Below are positions 3,541 through 63,467 of a stretch of 64,000 bases of DNA, piece by piece (within the stretch, counting starts at the first letter, position 1; every line of letters starts with the position of its first letter). The notes under the pieces were generated by a model. That model worked only from the letters and a program-made list of their open reading frames with translations. It did no database searches and had not been told where the DNA came from. Both the position numbers and the translations under genes were made by a program. This DNA is from Boswellia sacra (lineage: Eukaryota; Streptophyta; Magnoliopsida; Sapindales; Burseraceae), in assembly GCA_013180625.2 (NCBI GenBank), contig SNVD02014557.1, positions 27,237-91,236 on the forward strand, read 5' to 3'.

Positions 3541-4950
3541 TGATAAGTGTCTATTTATATATCATTTTCATATCAATTCGTCCATGTTTCTTTGCTATAT
3601 TCCTTGGTATTTTTATGTTTTTGTGTGGTTTTGATGTTTGTAGGAGTTTTGGAGCAACTTGCACAAAAATGGAGTAAAACCCTTCATTTTCACCTCTGCT
3701 AGTCAACCATCTTCTCGGATTTAATTGTATTGATATACAATGAACCCGATGACATATCATATACCGTTGAAAAGCTCTCGAAGTCTACTTTTTGGAGAAA
3801 TTTACGGTTTATGAATCCATTCAGTGTACCGAAAGTTGTAATCAAAACAGTGTAAGAAGTGTAGAAATGTAATTCCACACATCACTGTAGCATGTATAAT
3901 ACGGGACACTGTAGCACGTTACTGTAGCAGAGTATTTAAACACATTTTAGGGTTTTATTTCATAACTTGAAGAGGGGAGAACGTGGAGGAGGCTGCAGCT
4001 CTGGAATTCTTTCATCTCTTGGAGTTCTTGAAGGAGAAAGGAAGCTTGGAAAGAGGAAGAACTACAATCCAAAGAGAATTACATCAAATTTGCTAAGTTT
4101 TTCCCTTCCCTTTCATTTTCTGGAATGTCTCCATGTTGTATTGTATTTACCACGTTCTTAAACATGTGTAACTGAATCTGAATTGGTTGAGGGTGATTTC
4201 AAAGCCCCTGATATGGTTTTTGTAAGTTGATTGTGTAAGGAATTGTTATCCAATTCTCTAATTGAAGTTGCTTGTATTCTCCCATATTTAATGCTTATGA
4301 TTGCTTGCTGATTGTATTTGAGTGGCCAACTGAATATAATCTGGTTGTGATTCATTGCTAGACTAGAAATCTTGATCCGTAATTGTCTTGAATTTCTAAT
4401 CATTAGTAGCAAAATTGTGATCAGAGATTACAATTGGAGAATATAACCTAAGTTAAATAATCCGAGCTTGTGTGTTTATTGCTTAGATCAACCTATCTTT
4501 CTTATCATAATGCATCCATTGAATTAAACTCAGAGAGATTGTTCTAGGTTGTTTAATGGATAGAGATTAAATAAAGAGCTTGTTTTATTTAACAACAAAG
4601 TAAGGAAAGATTGGGGTAATAGAGCTTGTTATTATCTACGGTTGATAACTTCAATGCTGTAATTAGATGACAATTCTACAATTAATTCGCAAATCCATAT
4701 CTTGTGGTAGAGAAGGATCCCTTAACCAGCTTTCTCCCATTGATTTTCATTCAAATTTACTTTCTGTTTTGTTATTCTTTACTTGCATTCTTATTTCATT
4801 TAGTTAATCAATCAACAAAACCCCCCTCATTTAGTTTATTGTTGCTTTCGAATAACAAATTCAATTAGAATCAATCCTCGTGGGAACGATATCTTACTTA
4901 TCACTTTATTACTTGTGCGACTAGTATACTTGCTAGTTTCGAACGCATCA
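3541..4950 (+). repeat. Element A 5' LTR
   Basis: 1410 bp from TGATAAG to GCATCA. It carries a TATA-like tatttaaa at 3933-3940, preceded by three ACTGTAGCA boxes at 3884, 3908 and 3921. Transcription probably starts shortly after the TATA-like box. The short frames inside (for example 3967-4161) recur in every LTR copy because the LTRs are nearly identical, and I do not regard them as genes. Confidence 0.95.
3884..3940 (+). promoter_or_regulatory. LTR core promoter: triple ACTGTAGCA plus TATA-like box
   Basis: ACTGTAGCA occurs at 3884-3892, 3908-3916 and 3921-3929, followed at once by tatttaaa (3933-3940). The cluster recurs in the 5' LTRs of B and C with little change, and in solo LTR D, where the box is tatataaa. 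In the 3' LTR of A the first copy is damaged. The promoter role is inferred from position and conservation. Confidence 0.6.
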
Positions 4951-4956: not shown

Positions 4957-4974
4957 TGGCGCCGTTGCCGGGGA
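4957..4974 (+). promoter_or_regulatory. Element A primer-binding site (tRNA-Asp)
   Basis: The 18 bases tggcgccgttgccgggga lie 6 bp after the 5' LTR. They are complementary to the 3' end of plant tRNA-Asp including CCA, the primer typical of Athila-like Gypsy elements. The site is identical in B and C. Confidence 0.85.
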
Positions 4975-5063
4975 TTGATTTTCTAATCGATTTGTTATTT
5001 TGTTTTCATTGTTGATTCATATTTTCTTTGTTTTTCTTTTCTGATTGTTTGTGTTTAGACAAC

Positions 5064-6038
5064 ATGGCAGTAAACTTCTATCAATTCAGTAGCAGATTTG
5101 AGCCACAAGTACCATGGAGAGTAAATGAGGTAAGCACTCCGAACATTGAACAACAACTTTCTGAGCTAACCTCTCTTGTGGAAAACATGGCTGTAGGAGA
5201 TATGCAAAAATCTTATGAATGTGGGATATATTCTACGATGGAGCATCCAATCGACATGTATCCAACTTTACAAGAAGAATATATGGAACAAGCCAATGCC
5301 ATGGGTGGATTTCCAGGACAAACGAGGCAATGGTATGATCCTTTCTCTAGCACTTACAATGCTGGATGGGAAGATCAACATAATTTCAGTTACTGGAATC
5401 ATCAACCAATCACTCCAAATGTGATACCAAATCGGCAACAAAGTTTCAATCAACCTAAAGTGCAGCAACCATTTCAAATGCAACCACCACCAATGCCACA
5501 TCCAGCACCGCAACCAGCTTCGCAAAACTCAGGTATGTCTCTCGAAGATATTGTTAATGCACTTGCCACTAACACAATGCAATTCCAGCAGGAAACTGGG
5601 GCAAGTATCCAAAACTTGGCAAATCAAATGGGACAATTGGCCACTAGCATGAGCAAATTCGAGGGCCAAGGCTCAGAAGAATTATCTTGTCAAACGGTGA
5701 TCAATCCAAGAGAGAATTCTTGTGCGATAACTTTGCAAAATGAAGAGCAATTAGATGTCCTGCCAAAGAAATCACAAACTGATGAAGGAGATGACACCAC
5801 TTCCACCATGAACAAAACACTGACTTCTAAGGTAGATCTTAAAACTCAAATTCCTTCTTATGTTACTCCTCCACCATTTCCTAGCAGATTTGCAAAATCA
5901 AAGAAGGAGGAACAAGAACAAGAAATCCTGAAAACTTCTCACAAAATCGAGGTAAATATACCACTTCTGGATGCTATCAGCAAGTACCTCGTTATACAAA
6001 ATGTCTCAAGGAGTTATGCACCAGCAAGAGAAAGTTAA
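5064..6038 (+). CDS. Element A gag C-terminal region (capsid domain missing)
   Basis: An open frame of 324 codons begins at an ATG preceded by a pyrimidine-rich stretch and tgtttag. It corresponds to the part of gag downstream of the capsid domain: a Gln/Pro-rich middle (residues about 120-165) and an acidic, Lys-rich tail. Compared with element B, about 0.8 kb encoding the Retrotrans_gag domain is absent. The first codons here match the internal Met-Ala-Ala/Val-Asn of the longer B frame. The frame ends early because one base is missing near 5978 relative to element C; beyond this the retropepsin part continues in another frame. I call it a remnant that could still make a protein without capsid function. 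Confidence 0.7.
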   Translation: MAVNFYQFSSRFEPQVPWRVNEVSTPNIEQQLSELTSLVENMAVGDMQKSYECGIYSTMEHPIDMYPTLQEEYMEQANAMGGFPGQTRQWYDPFSSTYNAGWEDQHNFSYWNHQPITPNVIPNRQQSFNQPKVQQPFQMQPPPMPHPAPQPASQNSGMSLEDIVNALATNTMQFQQETGASIQNLANQMGQLATSMSKFEGQGSEELSCQTVINPRENSCAITLQNEEQLDVLPKKSQTDEGDDTTSTMNKTLTSKVDLKTQIPSYVTPPPFPSRFAKSKKEEQEQEILKTSHKIEVNIPLLDAISKYLVIQNVSRSYAPARES

Positions 6039-7083
6039 AAGGAAATGAGAAAGTAAGTGTGGGGGAAAATGTTTCAGCTGTATTGCAAAGAAAAATTCCT
6101 CCAAAGTGCAAAGATCCAGGTACGTTCACCATGCCATGCACCATTGGTAAAACCAAGTTTGAAAGAGTTATGTTAGATTTAGAAGCATCTATTAACATCA
6201 TACCATATTATATTTATGCTTCTTTAAATCTTAGACCTTTTGCGAAATTGGTATTACCATTCAAATTGCTGATCATTTTAATGCATATACCAAAAGAGTT
6301 GTGGAAGATGTGCTTGTGCAGGTGAATCAATTGGTTTTCCCAGCAGACTTTTCTGTTCTTGAAATAGAGGATGAGACATCTCCTAATCCAACACTGATTC
6401 TTATAGGGAGACCATTCTCGAAAACTGTTAGAACCAAGATTGATGTTCATGATGGCACTCTCATCATAGAGTTTGATGGCAAGGTGATATTTTTCAATAT
6501 TTTTGAGGCAATGAGGTACTCTAGTGACTTACATTCGGTTTTTGCAGTTGACGTTGTTGATTCTTTGCCACAACAATACTTTGAGTTAACTCGCAAGAAT
6601 GGATTGGATGTAGCTATTAGTGAGCATATAGGGACAGAAAATTCCAATGAGTCAGGAATTTTGATACAAGTGTCCAAAGAAATGGAGGAAGCTGTGGCAA
6701 GCTTGGATGAGACTATAGCTATCACCACAAATAGGTATGATGGTTCGTATATTGAATTGTCTTTATCTAACGAGAAACTTCTTCATTCTGTGATGAAGGT
6801 CAATACCGTGGAGCTTAAGTCACTTCCAGATCATTTGAATCATGGATTCTTGGGTGAGAATGGTACTTTGCCAATTATGATAGAAATGGGCCTTGCACCA
6901 CTAAAAGAAGAGAAACGCGTCCGAGTACTTAAAGATCACAAAATAGCTATTGGGTGGATGATTGCTAACATCCAAGGCCCAGCCATATGCATGGACCGTA
7001 TCTTGTTGGAAGAAGGATCCAAGCCCATTAGTGAAGCACAGCAGAGATTGGACCCTCCCGTGATGGAACCAACGTCGGGCTGA
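6039..7083 (+). pseudogene. Element A retropepsin-like (gag-pro) region, frameshifted
   Basis: It continues the gag frame after two single-base deletions (near 5978 and near 6240), giving separate open segments at 6059-6325 and 6301-7083. The segment near 6170-6200 encodes the aspartic-protease region, but the active-site triplet reads Asp-Leu-Glu-Ala, whereas element B has Asp-Leu-Gly-Ala; loss of this glycine should abolish activity. Later, LIGRPFSKTVRTKIDVHDGT shows the conserved retropepsin strand of Athila-like elements. The terminal TGA is at 7081-7083, just before the conserved hairpin. No reverse transcriptase follows. Confidence 0.75.
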
Positions 7084-7103
7084 GGACGTTAAACCAAGCG
7101 CTT

Positions 7104-7121: not shown

Positions 7122-7167
7122 GTTTTTGAAAAATAAATAAAAAGAAAAGAAAAGAAAAATAAAATAA

Positions 7168-7400
7168 GGTAATAATGATCAATTTTTGTGTCTCGAGGAG
7201 ATTCCATTTGTAGGTCATCAAATTGATCAGGTTTTATCTGTCTTTGACATCTGTCTTATTTGTTTTTACTTGTTTTTGACTTTTGTTTGTTATTGTGTTG
7301 TTATCTCTTTTATGTGTCTTTAGTTTCTTTTCTGCTCTTTTCTTTTCGTTTCTTTTGTTTAATTTGGTTATTTCGTACTTTGTGCTCATTTGTGCAACAG
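7168..7400 (+). other. Candidate intron or splice-acceptor region upstream of the cargo genes
   Basis: A possible donor, aag/gtaataatg near 7168, is followed by a long T-rich stretch and an acceptor-like ttgtgcaacag ending at about 7400, about 120 bp before the finger-protein ATG. The arrangement recurs in B (acceptor near 29354) and C (near 43596). Spliced subgenomic RNAs are known for env-like third frames of LTR elements, so this may give access to the cargo genes. It is inferred from sequence only. Confidence 0.35.
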
Positions 7401-7519
7401 ATTGAGGAAACACCGAAACAAGAATTGAAGCCATTGCTTGAAGGTTTGAAGCGTGCATATCTGGGAGAAGAACAAACTCAATCGCATTATCGGTAATATC
7501 TCTCCTTTTCTTCTCTTCA

Positions 7520-8072
7520 ATGGATGCTGATATCTTTCTATCGAACCTTCGTAAATATTTCCCTTCACTTCCTCAAAATGCTGTGTTTAAAATTTATAAA
7601 GTACGGATGACTAGACTTTGGGCATTGATGCTCCTAAATGTGCCTGCGATATCCGATGGCTTATCGAAGCCAAGGTGAGATTGTCCGGTGAGCCGGACAT
7701 TAATCTCGCAAATACATGCCTGGTCTAGGAAAGAGCTACTACGCCAAGAGGCGAAGAGCGAAAAGGTTACAAGTATGTTATAAATGTGCTAGATGGAATT
7801 GTAACCAGACTTGTCGTTCATTAGGTTTTGCGTCCAGGAATAGAGAAGATAAACTTTCATTTATTAAGAATGGTTTGAGTAATGAGTCGCTGGATAATGT
7901 TTTGTTAACTCTCGAGTCACATTCTTGTGGACTTGTTCAGCGTGAATTGCTTAATCTATGGACACAATTTCGTGATGAATTGCAGTGTTATAGTCTAGGG
8001 AATCTGACTAAAAACGACCCTGTTTGCCAGTTTATAAGAAAACTGGATGGGAAGCAAATCCCCGACTCATAG
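7520..8072 (+). pseudogene. Cys-rich nucleic-acid-binding-protein-like gene, element A copy (frameshifted)
   Basis: This is homologous to the intact 184-codon gene of element B (29474-30028). Two single-base deletions, one in cctgcg-atatcc near 7647 and one in tcgcaaa-tacatg near 7711, throw the N-terminal half out of frame. The C-terminal part remains open from 7716, starting MPGLGKSYYAKRRRAKRL and including the CYKC...CNQTC finger. Restarting at 7716 could give a 118-residue product with the basic region and finger intact. Apart from the two deletions the nucleotide sequence is almost the same as in B, so decay is recent. Confidence 0.7.
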
Positions 8073-8297
8073 AAGGCGTTTCAGCCGTTACTGGACGTAA
8101 AACCAGAGGAAGATGTGAGCCACAATCACAACTACTTGTATATTTGAATGTGTGTTGTTGTTGTAGAATTTTTTTTCTTGTTTCGTTTGATCTGATTATC
8201 AATGTTGTTTTTGTGTTGTTGTTGTTTGTTGATTTTGTTTGTTTTAATTTCAAGTTTTCTTTTTGACAAACCATATGACTACCCTATGCCATAAGTA

Positions 8298-8545
8298 CAC
8301 GTGGGAGACAAGTGTGGAGGTTTTGTCAACCTCCACCGAAAGTGTATCTCTATTTTTTATGCTTCACGTGGGAGACAAGTGTGGGGGTTTTGTCAACCCC
8401 CGCCGAAAGTGTATCTCCATTTTCCATGCTTCACGTGGGAGACAAGTGTGTAGGTTTTGTCAAACCTCGCCGAAAGCATATCTCATTTTTTCAAATCTTG
8501 GGGCGATAAATCTGCATCGAGCAACCCCCACCGAAAGTATGTCCC
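8298..8545 (+). repeat. 67-bp tandem array with CACGTG boxes and hairpins (element A)
   Basis: Three units with a 67-bp period, plus a fourth partial unit, lie between the finger-protein gene and LOG. Each unit starts with CACGTG (8298, 8365, 8432), continues ggagacaagtgt, then a hairpin with a ttgtc or tgtc loop, then ccgaaag. Unit 1 has a perfect 9-bp stem (8314-8322 with 8328-8336). Unit 2 keeps it with changed bases and one U-G pair. Unit 3 keeps a 6-bp stem. CACGTG is the G-box core bound by plant bZIP/bHLH factors. The array could act as DNA (promoter) or RNA (structured leader of LOG); the sequence does not decide. Confidence 0.75.
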
Positions 8546-8681
8546 CATGTGTCAAAATTTGAGAGTTTTATGGGTGTATATATACATTCTGCATATTTTC
8601 ATATGTCATTCCATAACCTGTCTTGCAATTGAAAAGCATAATATCTAACGTGTCTTACACAAGATTAGAGCACTTGTAGAA

Positions 8682-9332
8682 ATGGAGAAAACACCAATTC
8701 GGCGATTCCGCAATATATGCGTATTTTGCGGATCGCAATTTGGTAAAGATGGAGAGTTTACCACAGCAGCTCTTGATCTTGGTAGGACATTAGCTGCGAG
8801 GGGTATTAATTTGATTTATGGAGGGGGTAGTCTTGGGTTAATGGGGTGTGTGTCGACAGCTGCATCCTTGGGAGGAAGTAAAGTTCTCGGCATTATCCCT
8901 AAACCATTAGCTGTGCGAGATATCGTAGGCAACACAATCGGGGAAGAGTTACAAGTCTCTAGCATGCATGAGCGTATTGCACATATGATTGTTAAGTCCG
9001 ATGCATTTATAGCTTTACCCGGTGGTTATGGCACATTAGAGGAGATATTTCAAATCACCTCTTGGGCACAGCTAAACATCCATAAAAAACCCATTGGTTT
9101 GTTAAATGTCAATAATTTTTTTGATGGTTTGTTGTCTTTTCTTGATCAAGCTGTAGAAAAAAATTTTATCTCACCATCAGCGAGGCAAATCCTTGTTACA
9201 GCTTCAACGGCAGGGGAGTTAATTGACAAACTACAAGAATTCGTCTATTCGCCTGATCCAACAACAGCTCGGATTGATTGGTTTGGAGAAGGCAATAAGA
9301 GGCGTAAACTGGATTTAACACTCCATCTGTAA
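8682..9332 (+). CDS. LOG-like: LOG-type cytokinin riboside 5'-monophosphate phosphoribohydrolase carried by element A
   Basis: This intact intronless frame of 216 codons has the normal length for plant LOG enzymes, which release active cytokinin base from its nucleotide in one step in the cytosol or nucleus. Visible motifs are CVFCGS (13-18), YGGGSLGLMG (46-55), MHER (95-98, with the catalytic-type Arg98) and PGGYGTLEE (113-121, with the catalytic-type Glu121). One departure is Ile at 99, where most family members have Lys. The protein ends KRRKLDLTLHL: a basic patch followed by an LxLxL pattern like an EAR repression motif. The start is supported by family alignment; the ATG follows a G-box/hairpin array and lies 610 bp after the finger-protein stop. 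It sits inside the LTRs of a retrotransposon, and homologous broken copies occupy the same place in B and C. Plant LOG genes normally have several introns, so capture from a processed mRNA is likely. Confidence 0.9.
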   Translation: MEKTPIRRFRNICVFCGSQFGKDGEFTTAALDLGRTLAARGINLIYGGGSLGLMGCVSTAASLGGSKVLGIIPKPLAVRDIVGNTIGEELQVSSMHERIAHMIVKSDAFIALPGGYGTLEEIFQITSWAQLNIHKKPIGLLNVNNFFDGLLSFLDQAVEKNFISPSARQILVTASTAGELIDKLQEFVYSPDPTTARIDWFGEGNKRRKLDLTLHL

Positions 9333-11314: not shown

Positions 11315-12725
11315 TGATAAGTGTCTATTTATATATCATTTTCATATCAATTCGTCCATGTTTCTTTGCTATATTCCTTGGTATTTTTATGTTTTTGTGT
11401 GGTTTTGATGTTTGTAGGAGTTTTGGAGCAACTTGCACAAAAATGGAGTAAAACCCTTCATTTTCACCTCTGCTAGTCAACCATCTTCTCGGATTTAATT
11501 GTATTGATATACAATGAACCCGATGACATATCATATACCGTTGAAAAGCTCTCGAAGTCTACTTTTTGGAGAAATTTACGGTTTATGAATCCATTCAGTG
11601 TACCGAAAGTTGTAATCAAAACAGTGTGAGAAGTGTAGAAATGTAATTCCACACATCATGTAGCATGTATAATACGGGACACTGTAGCACGTTACTGTAG
11701 CAGAGTATTTAAACACATTTTAGGGTTTTATTTTCATAACTTGAAGAGGGGAGAACGTGGTGGAGGCTGCAGCTCTGGAATTCTTTCATCTCTTGGAGTT
11801 CTTGAAGGAGAAAGGAAGCTTGGAAAGAGGAAGAACTACAATCCAAAGAGAATTACATCAAATTTGCTAAGTTTTTCCCTTCCCTTTCATTTTCTGGAAT
11901 GTCTCCATGTTGTATTGTATTTACCACGTTCTTAAACATGTGTAACTGAATCTGAATTGGTTGAGGGTGATTTCAAAGCCCCTGATATGGTTTTTGTAAG
12001 TTGATTGTGTAAGGAATTGTTATCCAATTCTCTAATTGAAGTTGCTTGTATTCTCCCATATTTAATGCTTATGATTGCTTGCTGATTGTATTTGAGTGGC
12101 CAACTGAATATAATCTGGTTGTGATTTATTGCTAGACTAGAAATCTTGATCCGTAATTGTCTTGAATTTCTAATCATTAGTAGCAAAATTGTGATCAGAG
12201 ATTACAATTGGAGAATATAACCTAAGTTAAATAATCCGAGCTTGTGTGTTTATTGCTTAGATCAACCTATCTTTCTTATCATAATGCATCCATTGAATTA
12301 AACTCAGAGAGCTTGTTCTAGGTTGTTTAATGGATAGAGATTAAATAAAGAGCTTGTTTTATTTAACAACAAAGTAAGGAAAGATTGGGGTAATAGAGCT
12401 TGTTATTATCTACGGTTGATAACTTCAATGCTGTAATTAGATGACAATTCTACAATTAATTCACAAATCCATATCTTGTGGTAGAGAAGGATCCCTTAAC
12501 CAGCTTTCTCCCATTGATTTTTCATTCAAATTTACTTTCTGTTTTGTTATTCTATACTTGCATTCTTATTTCATTTAGTTAATCAATCAACAAAACCCCC
12601 CTCATTTAGTTTATTGTTGCTTTCGAATAACAAATTCAATTAGAATCAATCCTCGTGGGAACGATATCTTACTCATCACTTTATTACTTGTGCGACTAGT
12701 ATACTTGCTAGTTTCAAACGCATCA
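11315..12725 (+). repeat. Element A 3' LTR
   Basis: 1411 bp, nearly identical to 3541-4950, with a few substitutions and small indels (for example catcatgtag for catcactgtag). The end is fixed by the GTCAC duplicate at 12726-12730, after which the Copia-1 gag frame resumes. Confidence 0.95.
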
Positions 12726-24880: not shown

Positions 24881-26292
24881 TGATAAGTGTCTATTTATAT
24901 ATCATTTTCATATCAATTCGTCCATGTTTCTTTGCTATATTCCTTGGTATTTTTATGTTTTTGTGTGGTTTTGATGTTTGTAGGAGTTTTGGAGCAACTT
25001 GCACAAAAATGGAGTAAAACCCTTCATTTTCACCTCTGCTAGTCAACCATCTTCTCGGATTTAATTGTATTGATATACAATGAACCCGATGACATATCAT
25101 ATACCGTTGAAAAGCTCTCGAAGTCTACTTTTTGGAGAAATTTACGGTTTATGAATCCATTCAGTGTACCGAAAGTTGTAATCAAAACAGTGTGAGAAGT
25201 GTAGAAATGTAATTCCACACATTACTGTAGCATGTATAATACGGGACACTGTAGCACGTTACTGTAGCAGAGTATTTAAACACATTTTAGGGTTTTATTT
25301 TATAACTTGAAGAGGGGAGAACGTGGTGGAGGCTGCAGCTCTGGAATTCTTTCATCTCCTGGAGTTCTTGAAGGAGAAAGGAAGCTTGGAAAGAGGAAGA
25401 ACTACAATCCAAAGAGAATTACATCAAATTTGCTAAGTTTTTCCCTTCCCTTTCATTTTCTGGAATGTCTCCATGTTGTATTGTATTTACCACGTTCTTA
25501 AACATGTGTAACTGAATCTGAATTGGTTGAGGGTGATTTCAAAGCCCCTGATATGGTTTTTGTAAGTTGATTGTGCAAGAAGTTGTTATCCAATTCTCTA
25601 ATTGAAGTTGCTTGTATTTTCCCATATCTAATGCTTATGATTGCTTGCTGGATTGTATTTGAATGGCCAACTGAATATAATCTGGTTATTGTCTATTGCT
25701 AGACTAGAAATCTTGATCCGTAATTGTCTTGAATTTCTAATCCTTAGTAGCAAAATTGTGATCAGAGATTGCAATTGGAGAATACAACCTAAGTTAAATA
25801 ATCCGAGCTTGTGTGTTTATTGCTTAGATCAACCTATCTTTCTTATCGTAATGCATCCATTGAATTAAATTTAGAGAGCTTGTTCTAGGTTGTTTAATGG
25901 ATAGAGATTAAATAAAGAGCCTGTTTTATTTAACAACAAAGTAAGGAAAGATTGGGATAACAGAGCTTGTTGTTATTTACGGTTGATAATTTCAATGGTG
26001 TAATTGGATGACAATTCTACAATTAATTCGCAAATCCATATCTTGTGGTAGAGAAGGATCCCTTAACCAGGTTTCTCTCATTAATTTTTCAATCTGTTTA
26101 AATTTGCATTGTGTTATTCTTTACTTGCATTAATATTTCATCTAGTTAATCAATCAACAAAACCCCCCTCATTTAGTTTATTGTTGCTTTCGAATAACAA
26201 ATTCAATTAGAATCAATCCTCGTGGGAACGATATCTTACTCATCACTTTATTACTTGTGCGACTAGTATACTTGCTAGTTTCGAACGCATCA
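24881..26292 (+). repeat. Element B 5' LTR
   Basis: 1412 bp, TGATAAG to GCATCA. The first 700 bp are almost identical to the LTRs of A; the second half carries variants shared with C (tgtgcaagaa, ttttccca, aaagagcctg). The ACTGTAGCA cluster and tatttaaa (25273-25280) are present. Confidence 0.95.
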
Positions 26293-26398: not shown

Positions 26399-27232
26399 AT
26401 GTCCGAGGGAGAAGCGGATCAATGACTTAAGAGAATTAAGGAGTTTCTCCAATCCTCGAATTTAAGGCTAAATCGGTCAATTTCAACTCCACCTCCAGAA
26501 TTTGACCTTGCACGACATACTTCCCTCCCATCTTCTTGCAGTTCAATCAAATCTGAATCGGAAGCAATGGCGATGGAAAACGATCAGACTCTTAAGGAGT
26601 TAGCGGCTCCAATTATTGATCAACAACCGCTATGCATAAGCACCAATTTTGAGATAGATTTTGAACTTAAATCTGGACTGATTCATCTCTTGCCTACATT
26701 TCATGGTTTTGCAGGAGAGGATCCGAACAAACACCTCAAAGAATTTCATGTGGTATGCTCAAGTATGAAGCCAACCGGCATTTCTGAAGAGCAAATTAAA
26801 TTGAGAGCTTTCCCATTCTCATTAGCAGATTCGGCAAAAGATTGGCTATACTATCTACCACCAGGTACCATTACCACTTGGAATGAGATGAGTAAACTCT
26901 TTTTGGAGAAATACTTTCCAGCCTCGAAAGTTACAAATATTAGAAAAGATATTAGTGGCATTCGACAACACAATGGAGAATCACTTCATGAATATTGGGA
27001 GAGATTTAAAAGGTTATGTGCTAGCTGTCCAAACCACCAAATTAGTGATGGACTCCTAATTCAATATTTCTACGAGGGTCTCTTACCAATGGAAAGGAGT
27101 ATCATTGATGCTGCTAGTGGTGAAGCACTAGTTAATAAAACACCGAACGTTGCAAGACGTTTGATTAGTGACATGGCAGCGAACTCCCAACAATTCAGCA
27201 GTCAATTTGAGCCACAACTACAAAAAGAGTAA
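26399..27232 (+). pseudogene. gag: Element B gag with Retrotrans_gag (capsid) domain
   Basis: The ATG at 26399 follows tgtttag and opens a frame stopped by TGA at 26423-26425. The same frame is then open, with an ATG at 26567, for 221 codons. It has the Athila-type layout: LLPTFHGFAGEDPNKHLKEF (residues about 37-56 of the ATG-26567 frame) and the capsid core with AKDWLYYLPPGTITTW (about 91-106), EMSKLFLEKYFP, and GESLHEYWERFKRLC (about 139-153). These are hallmarks of the Retrotrans_gag family, which builds the virus-like particle. After 27232 the homology to the A/C gag tail continues in other frames. One premature stop and a downstream frameshift prevent a full product, but the capsid core is undamaged. 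Confidence 0.85.
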
Positions 27233-29006
27233 ATGAGGTAAGTACTTCAAACATTGAACATCAACTTTCTGAACTTACCTCTCTTGTAAAAAAATGGCTG
27301 TAGGACATATGCAGCAATCTTATGCATGTGGAGTATGTTCTGCCATGGACCATCCAACCGACATGTGTCCAACTTTGCAAGAAGGAGATACAGAACAAGC
27401 CAATGCCATGGGTGGATTTCCAGGATAACCAAGGCAAATGTAGGACCCTTTCTCCAATACTTACAATGCAGGATGGAGAGATCACCCTAATTTAAGATAT
27501 GGGAATCGTCAACCAATTGCCCCAAATGCCATACCAAATCGACCACCAGATTTCAATCAACCAAGGGTGCAGCAACCATTTCAAGCACAACCACAACCAG
27601 CACCACAACCAGCTCCACAAAATTCAGGTATGTCTCTCCAGGATATTGTTAAAGCACTTGCCACTAACACAATGCAATTTCAGCAGGAAACTAGGGCAAG
27701 TATCCAAAACCTGACAAAGAAATCACAAACTGATGAAGGAGATGACACCACTTCCACCATGAACAACACATCATCTTCTAAGGTCGATCTTGAAACTCAA
27801 ATTCCTTCTATGTTACTCCTCCACCTTTTCCTAGCAGATTTGCAAAATCAAAAAGGAGGAACAAGAACAAGAAATCCTGGAAACTTCTCACAAAATCGAG
27901 GTAAATATACCACTTCTGGATGCTATCGAGCAAGTACCTCGTTGTACAAAATTTCTCAAGGAGTTATGCACCAACAAGAGAAAGTTGAAGGGAAATGAGA
28001 AAGTAAGTGTGGGGGAAAATGTTTCAGCTGTATTGCAAAGAAAAATTCCTCCGAAATGCAATGATCCAGGTACGTTCACCATTCCATGCACCATTGGTAA
28101 AACCAAGTTTGAAAGAGCTATGTTAGATTTAGGAGCATCTATTAATGTTATGCCATATTTATTTATGCTTCTTTAAATCTTGGATGCGAAAACTGATATT
28201 ACCATTCAACTTGCTGATCATTTTAATGCATATCCCAAAAGAGTTGTGGAAGATGTGCTTATGCAGGTGAATCAATTGGTTTTTCAGCAGACTTCTATGT
28301 CCTTAAAATAGAGGATGAGACATCTCCTAATCCAACACCGATTCTTTTAGGGAGACCATTCTCGAAAATTGCTAGAATCAAGATTGATGTTCATGATGGC
28401 ACTTTCACCATGGAGTTTGATGGCAAAGTGATCCGTTTCAATATTTTCGAGGCAATGAGGTACCCTAGTGACTTGCATTCTGTTTTTGCAGTTGACATTA
28501 TTGATTCTTTGCCACAACAATGTTTTGAGTTAACTCGCAAGGATGGATTGGAAATGGCTATTAGTGAGCACATAGGGATAGAAAATTCCAAAGAACCAAG
28601 AAGGTTGATACAAGTGTCCAAAGAAATGGAGGAAGCTATGACATACTTAGATGAGACTATAGCTATAATCACAAACAGGTATGATGTTTCGTACATTGAA
28701 TTGCCTTTATCTAATGAGAAACTTCTTCCTTCTGTGATGAAAGCCAATACCTTGGAGCTTAAGCCACTTCCAGATTATTTGAAGCATGTGTTCTTGGGTG
28801 ACAAAGATCCTTTGCCAATTACAATAGAAATGGGCCTTGCACCACTAAAAGAAGAGAAACGCGTCCGAGTACTTAGAGATCACAAAATAGCTATTGGGTG
28901 GATGATTGCTGACATCCAAGGCCCAGCCATATGCATGGACCGTATCTTGTTAGAAGAAAGATCCAAGCCCATTAGTGAAGCACAGCGAGATTGGACCCTC
29001 CCATGA
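27233..29006 (+). pseudogene. Element B gag tail and retropepsin region, frameshifted
   Basis: This is homologous to 5080-7083 of A and 41270-43273 of C, but broken by several indels. One is a large deletion in the Gln-rich part near 27714, where the LANQMGQ stretch is missing; another breaks the protease shortly after its active site. Unlike A and C, the active-site triplet here is Asp-Leu-Gly-Ala (near 28125-28140), the functional form. The last open part, 28410-29006, matches the C-terminal retropepsin extension. Confidence 0.75.
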
Positions 29007-29473: not shown

Positions 29474-30028
29474 ATGGATGCCGATATCTTTCCGTCGAAC
29501 CTTCGTAAATATTTCCCTTCACTTCCTCAAAATGCTGTGTCTAAAATTTATAAAGTACGGATGACTAGACTTTGGGCGTTGATGCTTCTAAATGTGCCTG
29601 CGGATATCCGATGGCTTATCGAAGCCAAGGTGAGATTGTCCGGTGAGCCGGACATTAATCTCGCAAAATACATGCCTGGTCTAGGAAAGAGCTACTACGC
29701 CAAGAGGCGAAGAGCGAAAAGGTTACAAGTATGTTATAAATGTGCTAGATGGAATTGTAACCAGACTTGTCGTTCATTAGGTTTTGTGTCCAGGAATAGA
29801 GAAGATAAACTTTCATTTATTAAGAATGGTTTGAGTAATGAGTCGCTGGATAATGTTTTGTTAACTCTCGAGTCACATTCTTGTGGACTTGTTCAGCGTG
29901 AATTGCTTAATCTATGGACACAATTTCGTGATGAATTGCAGTGTTATAGTCTAGGGAATCTGACTAAAAACGACCCTGTTTGCCAGTTTATAAGAAAACT
30001 GGATGGGAAGCAAATCCCCGACTCATAG
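29474..30028 (+). CDS. Cys-rich basic finger protein, similar to plant-virus nucleic-acid-binding proteins (intact copy)
   Basis: The ATG at 29474 follows a pyrimidine-rich ttctcctcttca and opens 184 codons. An N-terminal helical part (1-75, with two RLW/RWL-type hydrophobic segments) leads into GKSYYAKRRRAKRL (about 78-91), a strongly basic nuclear-localisation-like stretch. This abuts CYKC...CNQTC (about 94-105), a compact Cys4 zinc-finger candidate. Then come FIKNG (about 119-123) and a Leu-rich tail. The order helix, RRRAK, Cys finger recalls the Viral_NABP family of carlavirus-type RNA viruses, whose proteins bind nucleic acid and suppress RNA silencing. That match is my reading of the pattern, not a search result. 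Closely similar but frameshifted copies lie at the same place in A and C. The frame upstream to 29441 is open, but the ATG at 29474 is shared by all three copies. Confidence 0.7.
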   Translation: MDADIFPSNLRKYFPSLPQNAVSKIYKVRMTRLWALMLLNVPADIRWLIEAKVRLSGEPDINLAKYMPGLGKSYYAKRRRAKRLQVCYKCARWNCNQTCRSLGFVSRNREDKLSFIKNGLSNESLDNVLLTLESHSCGLVQRELLNLWTQFRDELQCYSLGNLTKNDPVCQFIRKLDGKQIPDS

Positions 30029-30493: not shown

Positions 30494-30675
30494 ATAGAAA
30501 AAAACTTCATCTCACAGTCGGCGCGAGGCAAATCCTGGTTACAGCTTCAACTGCAGGGGAGTTAATTGACAAATTACAAGCATTCGTCTATTCGCCTGAT
30601 CCAGCAATAGCTTGGATAGATTGGTTTGGAGAAGGCAATAAGAGGCGTAAACTGGATTTAACGCTCCATCTGTAA
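30494..30675 (+). pseudogene. LOG-like: LOG remnant, element B copy (N-terminal two-thirds deleted)
   Basis: Only the last 60 or so codons remain, from just before NFISQSAR-like sequence to LDLTLHL and the TAA at 30673-30675. The junction joins ccaccgaaa of the hairpin array to agaaaaaaac of LOG. Relative to A and C this removes the LOG start, the YGGGS motif, the Arg motif and PGGYGTLEE, so the remnant cannot be an enzyme. Short A-rich matches at the junction suggest a deletion between micro-homologies. Confidence 0.85.
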
Positions 30676-32635: not shown

Positions 32636-34427
32636 TGATAAGTGTCTATTTATATATCATTTTCATATCAATTCGTCCATGTTTCTTTGCTATATTCCTT
32701 GGTATTTTTATGTTTTTGTGTGGTTTTGATGTTTGTAGGAGTTTTGGAGCAACTTGCACAAAAATGGAGTAAAACCCTTCATTTTCACCTCTGCTAGTCA
32801 ACCATCTTCTCGGATTTAATTGTATTGATATACAATGAACCCGATGACATATCATATACCGTTGAAAAGCTCTCGAAGTCTACTTTTTGGAGAAATTTAC
32901 GGTTTATGAATCCATTCAGTGTACCGAAAGTTGTAATCAAAACAGTGTGAGAAGTGTAGAAATGTAATTCCACACATCACTGTAGCATGTATAATACGGG
33001 ACACTGTAGCACGTTACTGTAGCAGAGTATTTAAACACATTTTAGGGTTTTATTTTGATAACTCGAAGTCTATATTCCTTGGCATTTTTATGTTTTTGTG
33101 TGGTTTTGATGTTTGTAGGAGTTTTGGAGCAACTTGCACAAAAATGGAGTAAAACCCTTCATTTTCACCTCTGCTAGTCAACCATCTTCTCGGATTTAAT
33201 TGTATTGATATACAATGAACCCGATGACATATCATATACCGTTGAAAAGCTCTCGAAGTCTACTTTTTGGAGAAATTTACGGTTTATGAATCCATTCAGT
33301 GTACCGAAAGTTGTAATCAAAACAGTGTGAGAAGTATAGAAATGTAATTCCACACATCACTGTAGCATGTATAATACGGGACACTGTAGCAATTACTGTA
33401 GCAGAGTATTTAAACACATTTTAGGGTTTTATTTTCATAACTTGAAGAGGGGAGAACGTGGTGGAGGCTGCAGCTCTGGAATTCTTTCATCTCTTGGAGT
33501 TCTTGAAGGAGAAAGGAAGCTTGGAAAGAGGAAGAACTACAATCCAAAGAGAATTACATCAAATTTGCTAAGTTTTTCCCTTCCCTTTTCATTTTCTGGA
33601 ATGTCTCCATGTTGTATTGTATTTACCACGTTCTTAAACATGTGTAACTGAATCTGAATTGGTTGAGGGTGATTTCAAGGCCCTTGATATGGTTTTTGTA
33701 AGTTGATTGTGCAAGAAGTTGTTATCCAATTCTCTAATTGAAGTTGCTTGTATTTTCCCATGTCTAATGCTTATGATTGCTTGCTGGATTGTATTTGAAT
33801 GGCCAACTGAATATAATCTGGATATTGTCTATTGCTAGACTAGAAATCTTGATCCGTAATTGTCTTGAATTTCTAATCCTTAGTAGCAAAATTGTGATCA
33901 GAGATTGCAATTGGAAAATACAACCTAAGTTAAATAATCCGAGCTTGTGTGTTTTTTGCTTAGATCAATCTATCTTTCTTATCGTAATGCATCCATTGAA
34001 TTAAATTTAGAAAGCGCGTTCTAGGTTGTTTAATGAATAGAGATTAAATAAAGAGCCTGTTTTATTTAACAACAAAGTAAGGAAAGATTGGGATAACAGA
34101 GCTTGTTGTTATCTACGGTTGATAATTTCAATGGTGTAATTGGATGACAATTCTACAATTAATTCGCAAATCCATATCTTGTGGTAGAGAAGGATCCCTT
34201 AACCAGGTTTCTCTCATTGATTTTTCTATCTGTTTAAATTTGCATTGTGTTATTCTTTACTTGCATTAATATTTCATCTAGTTAATCAATCAACAAAACC
34301 TCCTCATTTAGTTTATTGTTGCTTTCGAATAACAAATTCAATTAGAATCAATCCTCGTGGGAACGATATCTTACTCATCACTTTATTACTTGTACGACTA
34401 GTATACTTGCTAGTTTCGAACGCATCA
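32636..34427 (+). repeat. Element B 3' LTR with about 380-bp internal duplication
   Basis: 1792 bp instead of about 1411. The segment beginning tatattccttgg at 32691 restarts at 33071 and repeats the promoter half, including the ACTGTAGCA boxes. The junction reads gataactcgaagtc/tatattcc, close to the native ctcgaagtcta of the LTR, so slippage at that micro-homology is plausible. The LTR ends at 34427 before AAACC. Confidence 0.9.
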
Positions 34428-39740: not shown

Positions 39741-41142
39741 TGATAAGTGTCTATTTTTATATCAATTCGTCCATGTTTCTTTGCTATATTCCTTGGTATT
39801 TTTATGTTTTTGTGTGGTTTTGATATTTGTAGGAGTTTTGGAGCAACTTGCACAAAAATGGAGTAAAACCCTTCATTTTCACCTCTGCTAGTCAACCATC
39901 TTCTCGGATTTAATTGTATTGATATACAATGAACCCGATGACATATTATATACCGTTGGAAAGCTCTCGAAGTCTATTTTCTGGAGAAATTTACGGTTTA
40001 TAAATCCATTCAGTGTACCAAAAGTTGTAATCAAAACAGTGTGAGAAGTATAGAAATGTAATTCCACAAATCACTGTAGCATGTATAATACGGGACACTG
40101 TAGCAGTTACTGTAGCAGAGTATTTAAACACATTTTAGGGTTTTATTTTCATAACTTGAAGAGGGGAGAACGTGGAGGAGGCTGCATCTTTGGATTTCTC
40201 TCATCTCTTGGAGTTCTTGAAGGAGATTGAAGGCTTGGAAAGAGGAAGAACTACAAATCCTAAGAGATTTCATCAGATTTGCTAAGTTTTTCATTTCCCT
40301 TTCATTTTCTGGAATGCTATCCATATTGTATTGTATTTACGTTCTGAACATGTGTAACTAATCTGAATTGGTTGAGGGTGATTTCAAAGCCCTTGATATG
40401 GTTTTTGTAAGTTGATTGTGCAAGAATTATTATCCAATTCTCTAATTGAAGTTGCTTGTATTTTCCCATGTTTAATGCTTATGATTGCTTGCTGATTGTA
40501 TTTGGGTGGCCAACTGAATATAATCTGGATATTGTCTATTGCTAGACTAGAAATCTTGATCCGTAATTGTCTTGAATTTCTAATAATTATTAGCAAAATT
40601 GTGATCAGAGATTGCAATTGGAGAATATAACCTAAGTTAAATAATCCGAGCTTGTGTGTTTATTGCTTAGATCAACCTATCTTTCTTTTCGTAATGCATC
40701 CATTGAATTAAATTTAGAGAGCTTGTTCTAGGTTGTTTAATGGATAGAGATTAAATAAAGAGCCTGTTTTATTTAACAACAAAGTAAGGAAAGATTGGGA
40801 TAACAGAGCTTGTTGTTATCTACGGTTGATAATTTCAATGGTGTAATTGGATGATAATTCTACAATTAATTCGCAAATCCATATCTTGTGGTGGAGAATG
40901 ATCCCTTAACCAGATTTCTATCATTGATTAATTCCCATTTCAATTAAGTTTGCATTGTGTTATTCATTAATTACCGTCGTATTCAGTTTTTCATCTAGTT
41001 AATCAACTAACAAAACCCCCCATTTAGTTAATTGTTGCTGGAAATAACAAATTCAATTAGAATCAATCCTCGTGGGAACGATATCTTACTTATCACTTTA
41101 TTACTTGTGCGACTAGTATACTTGCTAGTTTCGAACGCATCA
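39741..41142 (+). repeat. Element C 5' LTR
   Basis: 1402 bp, TGATAAG to GCATCA. It lacks a short segment after ctattt compared with the 3' LTR. The ACTGTAGCA cluster and tatttaaa (40121-40128) are present. Confidence 0.95.
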
Positions 41143-43740: not shown

Positions 43741-44293
43741 ATGGATGCCGATATCTTTCTGTCGAACCTTCGTAAATATTTTCCTTCACTTCCTCAAAAT
43801 GCTGTGTTTAAAATTTATAAAGTACGGACGACTAGACTTTGGGTAATGATGCTCTTAAATCTGCCTGCGGATATCCGATGGCTTATCGAAGCCAAGGTGA
43901 GATTGTCCGGTGAGCCGGACATTAATCTCGCAAAATACATGCCTGGTCTAGGAAAAGCTACTACGCCAAGAGGCGAAGAGCGAAAAGGTTACAAGTATGT
44001 TATAAATGTGCTAGATGGAATTGTAACCAGACTTGTCGTTCATTAGGTTTTGTTCCAGAAATAGAGAAGATAAACTGTCATTTATTAAGAATGGCCTGAG
44101 TAATGAGTCATTGGATAATGTTTTATTAACTCTTGAGTCACATTCTTGTGGACTTGTTCAGCGTGAATTGCTTAATCTATGGACACAATTTCGTGATGAA
44201 TTGCAGTGTTATAGTCTAGGGAATCTGACTAAAAACGACCCTGTTTGCCAGTTTATAAGAAAACTGGATGGGAAGCAAATCCCCGACTCATAG
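43741..44293 (+). pseudogene. Cys-rich nucleic-acid-binding-protein-like gene, element C copy (frameshifted)
   Basis: The ATG at 43741 matches the start used in B. The frame is good for the first 73 or so codons, up to MPGLGK. A one-base deletion at ggaaaagctac near 43952 then shifts out the basic stretch and the finger. A second one-base deletion near 44053 leads to the C-terminal part, open to 44293. A long T run (43687-43709) lies upstream, probably slippage in the pyrimidine tract. Confidence 0.75.
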
Positions 44294-44913: not shown

Positions 44914-45528
44914 ATGGAGAAAGCACCAATTCGGCGATTCCAAAATATATGCGTATTTTGTGGATCGCAATTTGGTAAAGATGGACATTAGCTGTGAGGG
45001 GTATTCATTTGATTTATGGAGGGGGTAGTCATGGGTTAATGGGTGTGTGTCGACAGCTGCATCCTTGGGAGGAAGTAAAGTTCTCGGCATTATCCCTAAA
45101 CCATTAGCTGTGCGAGATATCATAGGCAACACAATGGGGGAAGAGTTACAGGTCTCTAGCATGCATGAGCGTATTGCACATATGGTCATTAAATCTGATG
45201 CATTTATAGCTTTGCCCGGTGGTTATGGTACATTAGAGGAGATATTTCAAATCACCTCTTGGGCACAGCTAAACATCCATCGGAAACCCATTGGTTTGTT
45301 AAATGTCAATAATTTTTTTGATGGTTTGTTGTCTTTTCTTGATCAAGCAGTAGAAAAAAACTTCATCTCACAGTCAGCGAGGCAAATCCTGGTTACAGCT
45401 TCAACTGCAGGGGAGTTAATTGACAAATTACAAGCATTCGTCTATTCGCCTGATCCAACAATAGCTCGGATAGATTGATTTGGAGAAGGCAATAAGAGGG
45501 TAAACTAGATTTAACGCTCCATCTGTAA
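44914..45528 (+). pseudogene. LOG-like: LOG gene, element C copy (frameshifted)
   Basis: The ATG at 44914 matches the start of the intact A copy. A 34-bp deletion between gga repeats near 44980, a missing G near 45043, a TGA at 45476-45478 in place of a Trp codon, and an indel near 45500 inactivate it. The middle remains open from 45047 and keeps MHERIAHM and PGGYGTLEE. Compared with A it shows scattered third-position changes, so it diverged before it was broken. Confidence 0.85.
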
Positions 45529-47511: not shown

Positions 47512-48922
47512 TGATAAGTGTCTATTTATATATCATTTTCATATCAATTCGTCCATGTTTCTTTGCTATATTCCTTGGTATTTTTATGTTTTTGTGTGGT
47601 TTTGATGTTTGTAGGAGTTTTGGAGCAACTTGCACAAAAATGGAGTAAAACCCTTCATTTTCACCTCTGCTAGTCAACCATCTTCTCGGATTTAATTGTA
47701 TTGATATACAATGAACCCGATGACATATTATATACCGTTGGAAAGCTCTCGAAGTCTATTTTCTGGAGAAATTTACGGTTTATAAATCCATTCAGTGTAC
47801 CAAAAGTTGTAATCAAAACAGTGTGAGAAGTATAGAAATGTAATTCCACAAATCACTGTAGCATGTATAATACGGGACACTGTAGCAGGTTACTGTAGCA
47901 GAGTATTTAAACACATTTTAGGGTTTTATTTTGATAACTTGAAGAGGGGAGAACGTGGAGGAGGCTGCATCTTTGGATTTCTCTCATCTCTTGGAGTTCT
48001 TGAAGGAGATTGAAGGCTTGGAAAGAGGAAGAACTACAAATCCTAAGAGATTTCATCAGATTTGCTAAGTTTTTCATTTCCCTTTCATTTTCTGGAATTG
48101 CTATGTATTGTATTGTATTTGTATTGTGTCTGAATATGTGTAACTAAATCTGAATTGGTTGAGGGTGATTTCAAAGCCCTTGATATGGTTTTGTGAGTTG
48201 ATTGTGCAAGAAATTGTTATCCAATTCTCTAATTGAAGTTGCTTGTATTTTCCCATGTTTAATGCTTATGATTGCTTGCTGATTGTATTTGGGTGGCCAA
48301 CTGAATATAATCTGGATATTGTCTATTGCTAGATTAGAAATCTTGATCCGTAATTGTCTTGAATTTCTAATCATTAGTAGCAAAATTGTGATCAGAGATT
48401 GCAATTGGAGAATACAACCTAAGTTAAATAATCCGAGCTTGTGTGTTTATTGCTTAGATCAACCTATCTTTCTTATCGTAATGCATCCATTGAATTAAAT
48501 TTAGAGAGCTTGTTCTAGGTTGTTTAATGGATAGAGATTAAATAAAGAGCCTGTTTTATTTAACAACAAAGTAAGGAAAGATTGGGATAACAGAGCTTAT
48601 TGTTATCTACGGTTGATAATTTCAATGGTGTAATTGGATGATAATTCTACAATTAATTCGCAAATCTTGTAGCAGAGAATGATCCCTTAACTAGATTTCT
48701 ATCATTGATAATTCCCATTTCAATTAAGTTTGCATTGTGTTATTCATTAATTACCGTCGTATTCAGTTTTTCATCTTGTTAATCAACCAACAAAACCCCC
48801 CATTTAGTTAATTGTTGCTGGAAATAACAAATTCAATTAGAATCAATCCTCGTGGGAACGATATCTTACTTATCACTTTATTACTTGTGCGACTAGTATA
48901 CTTGCTAGTTTCGAACGCATCA
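47512..48922 (+). repeat. Element C 3' LTR
   Basis: 1411 bp, bounded by ATGTG at 48923-48927, after which the Copia-2 gag frame resumes (Ala-Asn-Leu-Lys-Lys). Confidence 0.95.
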
Positions 48923-62048: not shown

Positions 62049-63467
62049 TGATAGGTGTCTTCTTATATATCATTTTCATATCAATTCGTCTATGTTTCTT
62101 CGCTATATTCCTTGGTATTTTTATATTTTTGTGTGATTTTTGATATTTGTAGGAGTTTTGGAGGAACTTGCACTAAATTGGAGTAAAACCCTTCATTTCC
62201 ACCTTTGCTAGTCAACCAACTTCTCGGATTTGATTGTATTGATATACAATGAACCAGATGACATGCTATATACCATTGGAAAGCTCTCGAAGTCTATTTT
62301 CTAGAGAAATTTACAGTTCACGAATCTATGTAGTGTACCAAAAGTTATGATAAAAATGGCATGAGAAGTGTAGAATTGTAATTCCACATATCACTGTAGC
62401 ATGTTATTATACGGGACACTGTAGCAAGTTACTGTAGCAGAGTATATAAACATATTTTAGGGTTTTATTTTGATAACAAGAAGAAGGGGAGAACGTGTTG
62501 GAGGCTTCATCTCTGGATTTCTCTCATCTCTTGGAGCTCTTGAAGGAGAAAGAAGGCTTGGAAAGAGGAAGAACTACAAACCCTAAAGAGATTTTCAAAG
62601 GATTTGCTAAGTTTTTCCTTTCCCTTTCATTTTGTGGAATGTCTCCATATTTTTTATTGTATTTGTATTGTGTTTGAATATGTGTAACTAAATCTGATTT
62701 GATTGAGGGTGATTTCAAAGCCCTTAATATGGTTTTTGTGAGTTGATTGTGCAAGAAGTCGTTATCCAATTCTCTAATTGAAATTGCTTTTATTTTCCCA
62801 TATCTAATGCTTATGATTGCTTGCTGATTGTATTTGGGGTTTCCAACTGAATATAATCTGGTTGTTGTCTATTGCTAGAGTAGAAATCTTGATCCGTAAT
62901 TGTCTTGAATTTCTAATCCTTAGTAGCAAAATTGTGATCTGAGATTGCAATTGGAGAATACAACCTAAGTTAAATAATCCGAGCTTGTGTGTTTATTGCT
63001 TAGATCAACCTATCTTTCTTATCTTAATGTATCCATTGAATTAAATTTAGAGAGCTTGTTCTAGGTTGTTTAATGGATAGAGATTAAATAAAGAGCCTGT
63101 TTTATTTAACAACAAAGTAAGGAAAGATTGGGATAACAGAGCTTGTTGCTATCTACGGTTGATAACTTCAATGCTGTAATTGGATGACAATTCTACGATT
63201 AATTCGCAAATCCATATCTTGTGATAGAGAATGATCCTTTAACCAGGTTACTCTCATTGATTTTTACTCAAATTAACTTAGCATTGTGTTATTCTTTACT
63301 TGCATTAATATTTCATCTAGGTAATCAATCAACAAAAACCCCCCCGTTTATTCTGTTTTTGCTTTTGAATAACAAATTCAATTAGAATCAATCCTCGTGG
63401 GAACGATATCTTACTCATCACTTTATTACTTGTGCGATTAGTATACTTGCTAGTTTCGAACGCATCA
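62049..63467 (+). mobile_element. Solo LTR D of the cargo-carrying Gypsy family
   Basis: 1419 bp from TGATAGG to GCATCA, flanked by GATAC (62044-62048 and 63468-63472). Homologous along its whole length to the LTRs of A, B and C but more diverged. It carries the three ACTGTAGCA boxes and a better TATA box, tatataaa (62443-62450). No primer site or internal sequence follows, so it arose by recombination between the LTRs of a former full element. Confidence 0.93.

What the first reader, a model, noticed from the sequence alone, without database searches (positions are those of the whole stretch)
8682..9332. An intact, intronless LOG cytokinin-activating enzyme is carried inside an LTR retrotransposon
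The 216-codon frame has the full LOG motif set (CFCGS, YGGGSLGLMG, MHER, PGGYGTLEE). It lies between LTRs with a perfect target duplicate, and broken copies occupy the same position in two sister elements (30494-30675, 44914-45528). A retrotransposon moving a hormone-activating enzyme would be an unusual cargo with a possible effect on host cell division. Intronless structure inside LTRs points to capture from processed mRNA.
Basis: partly seen in the sequence, partly recalled or inferred. Interest (0 to 1): 0.92.

Follow-up and report, generated by a model that had tools for sequence, protein, structure and literature searches.

The report
Retrotransposon carrying hormone enzyme and suppressor
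An abundant plant jumping element carries an intact gene for a predicted hormone-activating enzyme and, beside it in every copy examined, a relative of a plant-virus protein that likely blocks RNA silencing; both genes bear the mark of selection, so the element would bring its own tools for changing the cell it lives in.

Summary
In detail: an intact 216-codon LOG frame (8682-9332) lies inside a 9.2-kb LTR element with a GTCAC target duplicate, and broken copies sit at the same place in two sister elements. Upstream of LOG in 48 of 48 loci examined is a second cargo gene, a 184-aa zinc-finger protein of the carlavirus/allexivirus CRP family (Pfam Viral_NABP, Carla_C4). Of 150 scored copies each in the 638.6-Mb host genome, 139 LOG and 149 NABP matches hold no stop. 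Variants shared between copies show purifying selection on both genes (pN/pS 0.15 and 0.06, cross-sampled), not on the leftover stub of pol (0.72, 0.81). Pol-bearing relatives have INT-NABP-LOG; the window's elements lost about 2.7 kb of pol but kept the cargo. Related LOGs form one group apart from sampled host LOGs, and 93 of 120 end in an LxLxL (EAR-like) tail, found in 0 of 120 host LOG hits. LOG in LTR elements of Citrus and Populus is already in print; I saw no report of the viral-type partner, the pairing or the tail. Likely reading: an accessory module for silencing suppression and cytokinin release. All functions are untested.

The parts
3541..4950 (+). Element 1, 5' LTR
   Evidence: 5' flank GTCAC
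4957..4974 (+). Element 1, primer-binding site (tRNA-Asp type, recalled)
5064..6038 (+). Element 1, gag remnant behind the capsid part (capsid part missing)
6511..7083 (+). Element 1, pol stub that ends in the first residues of RT
   Evidence: matches the start of the pol frame in L059
7520..8072 (+). Element 1, NABP/CRP gene, broken by two frame shifts
8298..8491 (+). 67-bp tandem repeats with CACGTG(G) cores between NABP and LOG
   Evidence: CACGTGG present upstream of LOG in 47 of 48 loci
8577..8584 (+). TATATATA, possible TATA box about 100 bp upstream of the LOG start
   Evidence: TATATA[AT] in 46 of 48 loci
8682..9332 (+). Element 1, intact LOG frame with KRRK-LDLTL tail
11315..12725 (+). 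Element 1, 3' LTR
   Evidence: 3' flank GTCAC
24881..26292 (+). Element 2, 5' LTR
   Evidence: flank AAACC
26567..27232 (+). Element 2, gag with capsid domain
   Evidence: Retrotrans_gag 7.3e-22
28410..29006 (+). Element 2, pol stub
29474..30028 (+). Element 2, intact NABP/CRP gene, 184 aa
   Evidence: Viral_NABP 1.7e-10 and Carla_C4 3.2e-5, both above cut-off
30495..30675 (+). Element 2, remaining 3' part of LOG
32636..34427 (+). Element 2, 3' LTR with an internal duplication
   Evidence: flank AAACC
39741..41142 (+). Element 3, 5' LTR
   Evidence: flank ATGTG
43741..44293 (+). Element 3, NABP/CRP gene, broken by two frame shifts
44914..45528 (+). Element 3, LOG, broken
47512..48922 (+). Element 3, 3' LTR
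   Evidence: flank ATGTG
62049..63467 (+). Solo LTR of the family
   Evidence: duplicate GATAC

Best explanation
This is a Ty3-type plant LTR retrotransposon family with a two-gene accessory module between integrase and the 3' LTR, made of a virus-type zinc-finger CRP/NABP gene and a LOG gene with a KRRK-LDLTL tail; the module likely helps the element by damping RNA silencing (CRP/NABP) and would release active cytokinin in the host cell (LOG). Shown by sequence: uninterrupted frames, linkage in every locus examined, position after INT in pol-bearing copies, purifying selection on both genes but not on the pol stub, and one LOG group in other plants in which the tail is common. Inferred: that the NABP acts in the nucleus or cytoplasm on RNA or transcription, as its viral relatives do; that LOG converts cytokinin nucleotides to free bases; that the tail brings LOG to the nucleus and to TOPLESS-type co-repressors; that together they keep cells dividing or weakly silenced so that new copies reach the germ line; and that pol-less copies are mobilised in trans by pol-bearing relatives.
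For: Linkage: NABP beside LOG in 28 of 28 LOG-chosen and 20 of 20 NABP-chosen loci and in joined gene models of Rhamnella, Orobanche and Gossypium. Position: integrase end before NABP in 7 of 48 loci, and a gag and pol frame leading to it at one locus. Selection, cross-sampled, shared variants: LOG 43 synonymous and 21 nonsynonymous, pN/pS 0.15, p = 2e-15; NABP 14 and 3, 0.06, p = 1e-7; pol stub 0.72 and 0.81, not significant; cargo against stub p = 5e-8 and 3e-5. Window pair el1-el3: dN/dS 0.085 NABP, 0.23 LOG, 0.42 gag remnant, 0.87 stub. LOG fold and residues: best match At2g37210, E = 1.6e-24; R98 in 47 of 48 and E121 in 48 of 48 loci. Family: Viral_NABP and Carla_C4 above cut-off; 117 of 120 listed relatives carry one or both. 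Tail: LxLxL in 93 of 120 relatives, 44 of 44 complete tails here, 0 of 120 host hits. Viral CRPs as silencing suppressors, and one as transcription factor inducing hyperplasia: PMC12172455, passages.
Against: No activity, expression or localisation was tested. Many copies are broken: LOG is whole in only 3 of 20 NABP-chosen loci, NABP in 13 of 28 LOG-chosen loci. The short C-terminal LOG piece of el2 against el3 gives dN/dS 1.28 (1 synonymous, 4 nonsynonymous, 41 codons), and el1 against el2 there is not significant in one count (p = 0.07) though it is in another (p = 8e-4). Loci were picked by hand from the best-scoring places, not at random. The score of LOG is below the NCBIfam equivalog cut-off (118.5 against 300). 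Some LOG relatives lack the usual strings (PGGxGTxxE in 105 of 120). The NABP model is weak, and no viral sequence was compared beyond the Pfam profiles. In allexiviruses only exported CRPs are said to suppress silencing (PMC10335701, passages).
Confidence: 0.5

Rival explanations
1. The NABP serves replication of the element itself, as a separate nucleocapsid-like RNA chaperone or packaging protein, rather than as a silencing suppressor; LOG is kept for an independent reason.
For: NABP is basic with a C-x2-C-x4-C-x3-C string (95 of 120 relatives) and is the more constrained of the two (pN/pS 0.06). Pfam found no zinc knuckle in the gag pieces scanned from element 2.
Against: It is a separate gene behind integrase with the closest profile matches in RNA-virus CRPs; Pfam can miss a zinc knuckle, and gag was scanned in a few pieces only.
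Confidence: 0.2
2. LOG in the element has lost or reduced its hormone-releasing role and works mainly as a nuclear co-repressor scaffold through its EAR-like tail.
For: LxLxL tail in 93 of 120 relatives and 44 of 44 complete tails here; long branch to host LOGs (0.37); PGGxGTxxE in 105 of 120 and the MxxR-type string in 95 of 120 relatives only.
Against: R98 in 47 of 48 and E121 in 48 of 48 loci here; E120 and E121 are invariant in the 31-row alignment.
Confidence: 0.2
3. The two genes are chance passengers captured by the element, without function in it.
For: Many copies are broken; capture of host genes by plant LTR elements is known (PMC7264820, first part read).
Against: Purifying selection on shared variants, linkage in 48 of 48 loci, one LOG group in several plant orders.
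Confidence: 0.05
4. The NABP family began in plant LTR elements (or a plant gene) and flexiviruses took it from them, so the module is not of viral origin.
For: The element protein has conserved parts on both sides of the stretch that matches the viral profile (35-145 of 184), and its relatives are found in many plants.
Against: Direction was not tested; scans of viral contigs returned no relatives to compare.
Confidence: 0.25

Closest known systems
LTR elements with a YgdH/LOG domain in Citrus and Populus (PMC9289625, passage seen; it cites Steinbauerova et al. 2011, not held here; from memory the 2011 abstract names two Athila-like elements with a LOGL4-like frame)
   Same: LOG-type frame inside plant LTR elements
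   Different: The passage names no NABP partner, tail, selection or pol-less cargo copies
Orchid Ty3 elements with an m6A RNA demethylase domain (PMC9289625; title, start of abstract and passages seen)
   Same: Accessory enzyme domain fixed in a plant Ty3 lineage and thought to serve the element
   Different: One domain there; here two separate genes, one of virus-family type and one hormone enzyme
CRP/NABP proteins of carlaviruses, allexiviruses and mandariviruses (PMC12172455 and PMC10335701, passages)
   Same: Zinc finger and basic stretch, Viral_NABP and Carla_C4 profiles
   Different: Encoded by an LTR element, 184 aa, with conserved flanking parts; suppression untested
Plant LOG proteins At2g37210 and At5g11950 (structures 2a33, 1ydh)
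   Same: Fold and catalytic strings; 57% and 52% identity in the structure alignment
   Different: Element LOG has a basic + LxLxL tail and groups apart from the sampled host LOGs
Athila-type elements with an env-like frame behind pol (PMC7264820, first of three parts read; PMC6317226, passages)
   Same: Extra sense frames between pol and the 3' LTR
   Different: NABP and LOG take this place; neither is env-like

Membership tests
LOG cytokinin riboside 5'-monophosphate phosphoribohydrolase | Lysine_decarbox domain / TIGR00730 subfamily | tested here: met
   PF03641 6.4e-39; TIGR00730 177.9 bits against cut-off 96.35
LOG cytokinin riboside 5'-monophosphate phosphoribohydrolase | NCBIfam equivalog CtkRMPhLog (a model for bacterial and archaeal annotation) | tested here: not met
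   118.5 bits against cut-off 300
LOG cytokinin riboside 5'-monophosphate phosphoribohydrolase | PGGxGTxxE string, Arg in the MHER string, LOG fold | tested here: met
LOG cytokinin riboside 5'-monophosphate phosphoribohydrolase | Release of cytokinin bases | not testable with these tools
   needs an enzyme assay
Carlavirus/allexivirus-type CRP (NABP) | Viral_NABP and Carla_C4 profiles above cut-off | tested here: met
   41.7 against 23 and 24.2 against 20.9 bits
Carlavirus/allexivirus-type CRP (NABP) | Zinc-finger cysteines and basic stretch | tested here: met
   present in the window frame; strings found in 95 and 101 of 120 relatives
Carlavirus/allexivirus-type CRP (NABP) | Place among viral CRPs in a tree | not tested
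   no viral sequences were obtained
Carlavirus/allexivirus-type CRP (NABP) | RNA silencing suppression | not testable with these tools
   needs a plant assay
Ty3 (gypsy) LTR retrotransposon | LTRs, PBS, target duplicates, gag | tested here: met
Ty3 (gypsy) LTR retrotransposon | RT-RNase H-integrase in that order | tested here: met
   in the pol-bearing relative L059; absent from the window's three elements, which keep a stub
Athila lineage | Place of RT in a tree of plant Ty3 lineages | not tested
   no lineage tree was made; the name rests on recall of Athila-like elements with LOG
EAR-motif repressor | LxLxL string | tested here: met
   LDLTL at the C-terminus; 44 of 44 complete tails. That LxLxL is an EAR form is recalled
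EAR-motif repressor | TOPLESS binding and repression | not testable with these tools
   needs an interaction assay

The most novel reading that the evidence does not exclude
A lineage of plant retrotransposons, found in several eudicot orders, has built a virus-like accessory arsenal: an RNA-virus-type silencing suppressor plus a cytokinin-activating enzyme rebuilt into a nuclear, TOPLESS-binding protein, which together reprogram host cells towards division and weak silencing. Pol-less copies keep this arsenal and amplify as cargo vehicles.
Probability: 0.3. Interest if true: 0.93.

Novelty: new variant of a known kind. Interest (0 to 1): 0.8.

Why it matters
The origin and function of many extra frames in plant LTR elements is unknown. 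Here two of them have recognisable families, carry the mark of selection even in a family whose members have lost pol, and point at two testable host targets, RNA silencing and cytokinin. It would give a plant parallel to retroviral accessory genes. It also bears on annotation: some members of the element LOG group carry LOG or LOGL10 names in public plant records (Populus, Melia), so counts of host LOG genes may include element genes.

Tried and rejected
Viral-contig scans with the NABP protein and with alignment A1 found no relatives. PDB sequence search with NABP found nothing up to E = 10. The NABP structure model was too weak to search (pLDDT 64.3, pTM 0.31). Folding of the NABP-LOG spacer gave z = -1.70, 9 of 200 shuffles as good, not convincing. 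The first dN/dS run had an off-by-one block for NABP el1-el3; it was replaced. LOG pN/pS in LOG-chosen loci (0.10) is biased by choosing loci on LOG similarity and is not used as main evidence. The first count stopped with an error at the gag frame after LOG, NABP and the stub; one search replaced it without gag. A first fetch for a pol region (L057) held another broken LOG and an unrelated frame. Host LOG paralogues of this genome could not be seen: the 150 scored places of a host LOG query matched at 52-55%, many at the same places as. A shorter host piece and a search for flexivirus coat protein (PF00286) did not complete.

Full report
What is in the window. Three sister LTR elements and one solo LTR of one family lie in the 64 kb. 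Element 1 (3541-12725) has LTRs that differ at 8 of 1408 sites and a GTCAC duplicate on both sides; element 2 (24881-34427) has AAACC; element 3 (39741-48922) ATGTG; the solo LTR (62049-63467) GATAC. The LOG frame at 8682-9332 is intact in element 1, cut to its last part in element 2 and broken in element 3.

The missed half. Element 2 has an intact 184-aa frame at 29474-30028 that matches Viral_NABP (1.7e-10) and Carla_C4 (3.2e-5), both above the curated cut-off. It is a basic zinc-finger protein of the kind that carlaviruses, allexiviruses and mandariviruses encode. Elements 1 and 3 have it at the same place, broken by two frame shifts each. A protein search gave 154 relatives, of which 120 were listed; 117 of these carry one or both Pfam families. 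Named sources are Xanthoceras, Populus, Rhamnella, Orobanche, Gossypium and Citrus. Public gene models join NABP to LOG in Rhamnella and Orobanche (Pfam; in the Rhamnella model the NABP part scores below cut-off) and, by eye, in Gossypium. One Rhamnella model joins NABP to a stretch that I read as an integrase end; the same stretch lies before NABP in pol-bearing copies here.

The whole genome. The window lies in an unnamed 638.6-Mb genome. The LOG protein gave 14,781 first-look candidates; the 150 that were scored match at 95-100%, and 139 of them have no stop inside. NABP gave 13,929; the 150 scored match at 97-100%, and 149 have no stop. These are the best-scoring places by design. I examined 28 loci found by LOG (8 given by the tool, 20 picked by hand) and 20 found by NABP (picked by hand): 28 of 28 have NABP and 20 of 20 have LOG. 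A strict frame scan found both genes whole in 13 of 30 sequences (the 28 loci plus window elements 2 and 3). NABP is whole in 13 of 28 LOG-chosen loci, LOG in 3 of 20 NABP-chosen loci, so decay of single copies is common.

Pol-bearing relatives. The integrase end stands before NABP in 7 of 48 loci, a lower bound because the stretches reach only a short way upstream. At one place (L059, then L056) a 5' LTR, a PBS, gag and an open 1099-aa frame with RVT_1, RNase H and integrase domains precede NABP and LOG; LOG there aligns with gaps, and I do not claim that any copy is whole. The window's three elements match this pol frame only up to the first residues of RT and resume behind the integrase, a loss of about 2.66 kb by the locus coordinates. 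The same stub is covered to at least 85% in 13 of 28 and 15 of 20 loci. So pol was lost while NABP and LOG stayed. Elements 1 and 3 also lack the capsid part of gag.

Selection. In the window pair el1-el3, dN/dS is 0.085 for NABP (p = 5e-6) and 0.23 for LOG (p = 8e-5), 0.42 for the gag remnant and 0.87 for the pol stub; the stub gives 0.69 and 1.35 in the other two pairs. Against this, the short LOG piece shared by el2 and el3 gives 1.28 on 5 changes. Across genome copies I counted variants shared by two or more copies (older) apart from those in one copy only (mostly post-insertion). To avoid choosing on the tested gene, LOG was tested in NABP-chosen loci: shared 43 synonymous and 21 nonsynonymous, pN/pS 0.15, p = 2e-15; single 0.75, not significant. 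NABP in LOG-chosen loci: shared 14 and 3, 0.06, p = 1e-7; single 0.46, p = 2e-4. Pol stub: shared 0.72 and 0.81, single 1.07 and 0.81, none significant. Both cargo genes differ from the stub (p = 5e-8 and 3e-5). The source lineage therefore appears to have kept both cargo proteins while single copies decay. The loci come from the best-scoring places and were not a random sample.

The LOG group and its tail. A tree of 54 rows puts 30 element-type LOGs in one group (98/94) and 22 host LOGs in another (99/95). That all 30 lie in elements was not checked one by one. The host rows are LOG1/LOG3-type hits plus At5g11950, so another host LOG group could still be the closest donor. Of 120 listed relatives of the window LOG, 93 have LxLxL in the last 12 residues and 91 also a basic pair in the last 20; of 120 host LOG hits, found with a query lacking a tail, none has LxLxL in the last 30, some of them being odd or extended gene models. 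In this genome 44 of 44 complete tails keep LxLxL. The model of the protein (pLDDT 89.5) matches At2g37210, and its tail is low in confidence. LxLxL as an EAR form is recalled; that EAR motifs bind TOPLESS was seen in passages of PMC3885651.

How it likely works. Viral CRPs are described as RNA-silencing suppressors, and chrysanthemum virus B p12 also as a transcription factor that induces hyperplasia (PMC12172455, passages). Allexivirus CRPs enter the nucleus, and those authors infer that only the exported ones suppress silencing (PMC10335701, passages). LOG enzymes release active cytokinin (established knowledge). The simplest joint reading is a module that weakens silencing and pushes host cells towards division, to the element's benefit. 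Each functional step is inferred. G-box cores and a TATA string lie upstream of LOG in 47 and 46 of 48 loci, so LOG may have its own promoter; recent copying alone could explain their presence.

What is known. LOG/YgdH domains in LTR-element consensus sequences of Citrus and Populus are in print (PMC9289625, passage). Steinbauerova et al. 2011 is not held; from memory it names Athila-like elements with a LOGL4-like frame. In Neumann et al. 2019 (PMC6317226) the terms LOG, cytokinin and carla do not occur in the main text; of Vicient and Casacuberta 2020 (PMC7264820) I read the first of three parts, which mentions neither. In the rows listed by the searches I saw no paper, by title and abstract start, on a CRP/NABP gene in an LTR element or on its pairing with LOG; several of these searches list only the best 20 or fewer, and the library lacks most subscription journals. 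I therefore call it a new variant of a known kind.

Odds.

Noticed in passing
8298-8491: 67-bp tandem repeats with CACGTGG cores and GC-rich inverted repeats between NABP and LOG; fold z only -1.70.
   Followed up: partly
32636-34427: The 3' LTR of element 2 holds a duplication of about 380 bp (32690-33068 and 33070-33447, 98.4% alike).
   Followed up: no
5064-6038 and 41254-41812 against 26567-27232: Elements 1 and 3 lack the gag capsid stretch that element 2 keeps.
   Followed up: partly
P0025, P0049, P0073, P0078 (the last three named Xanthoceras): LOG relatives with a basic end but no LxLxL; P0025 and P0049 branch at the base of the element-type group, perhaps an earlier stage of the tail.
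   Followed up: no
2584-3342: Copia-type gag frame (Retrotran_gag_2 1.8e-15), unrelated to the finding.
   Followed up: no
55032-56741: Pieces of a hAT-type transposase (zf-BED 4.7e-5, hAT-like_RNase-H 1.1e-19).
   Followed up: no
53461-53809: Local repeat array, copies 84-86% alike, giving a repetitive minus-strand frame.
   Followed up: no
6055, 8377, 10571, 10694, 11300: The PPT-like string AAGTGTGGGGG before the 3' LTR recurs inside element 1 and is found nowhere in the window outside the three elements.
   Followed up: partly
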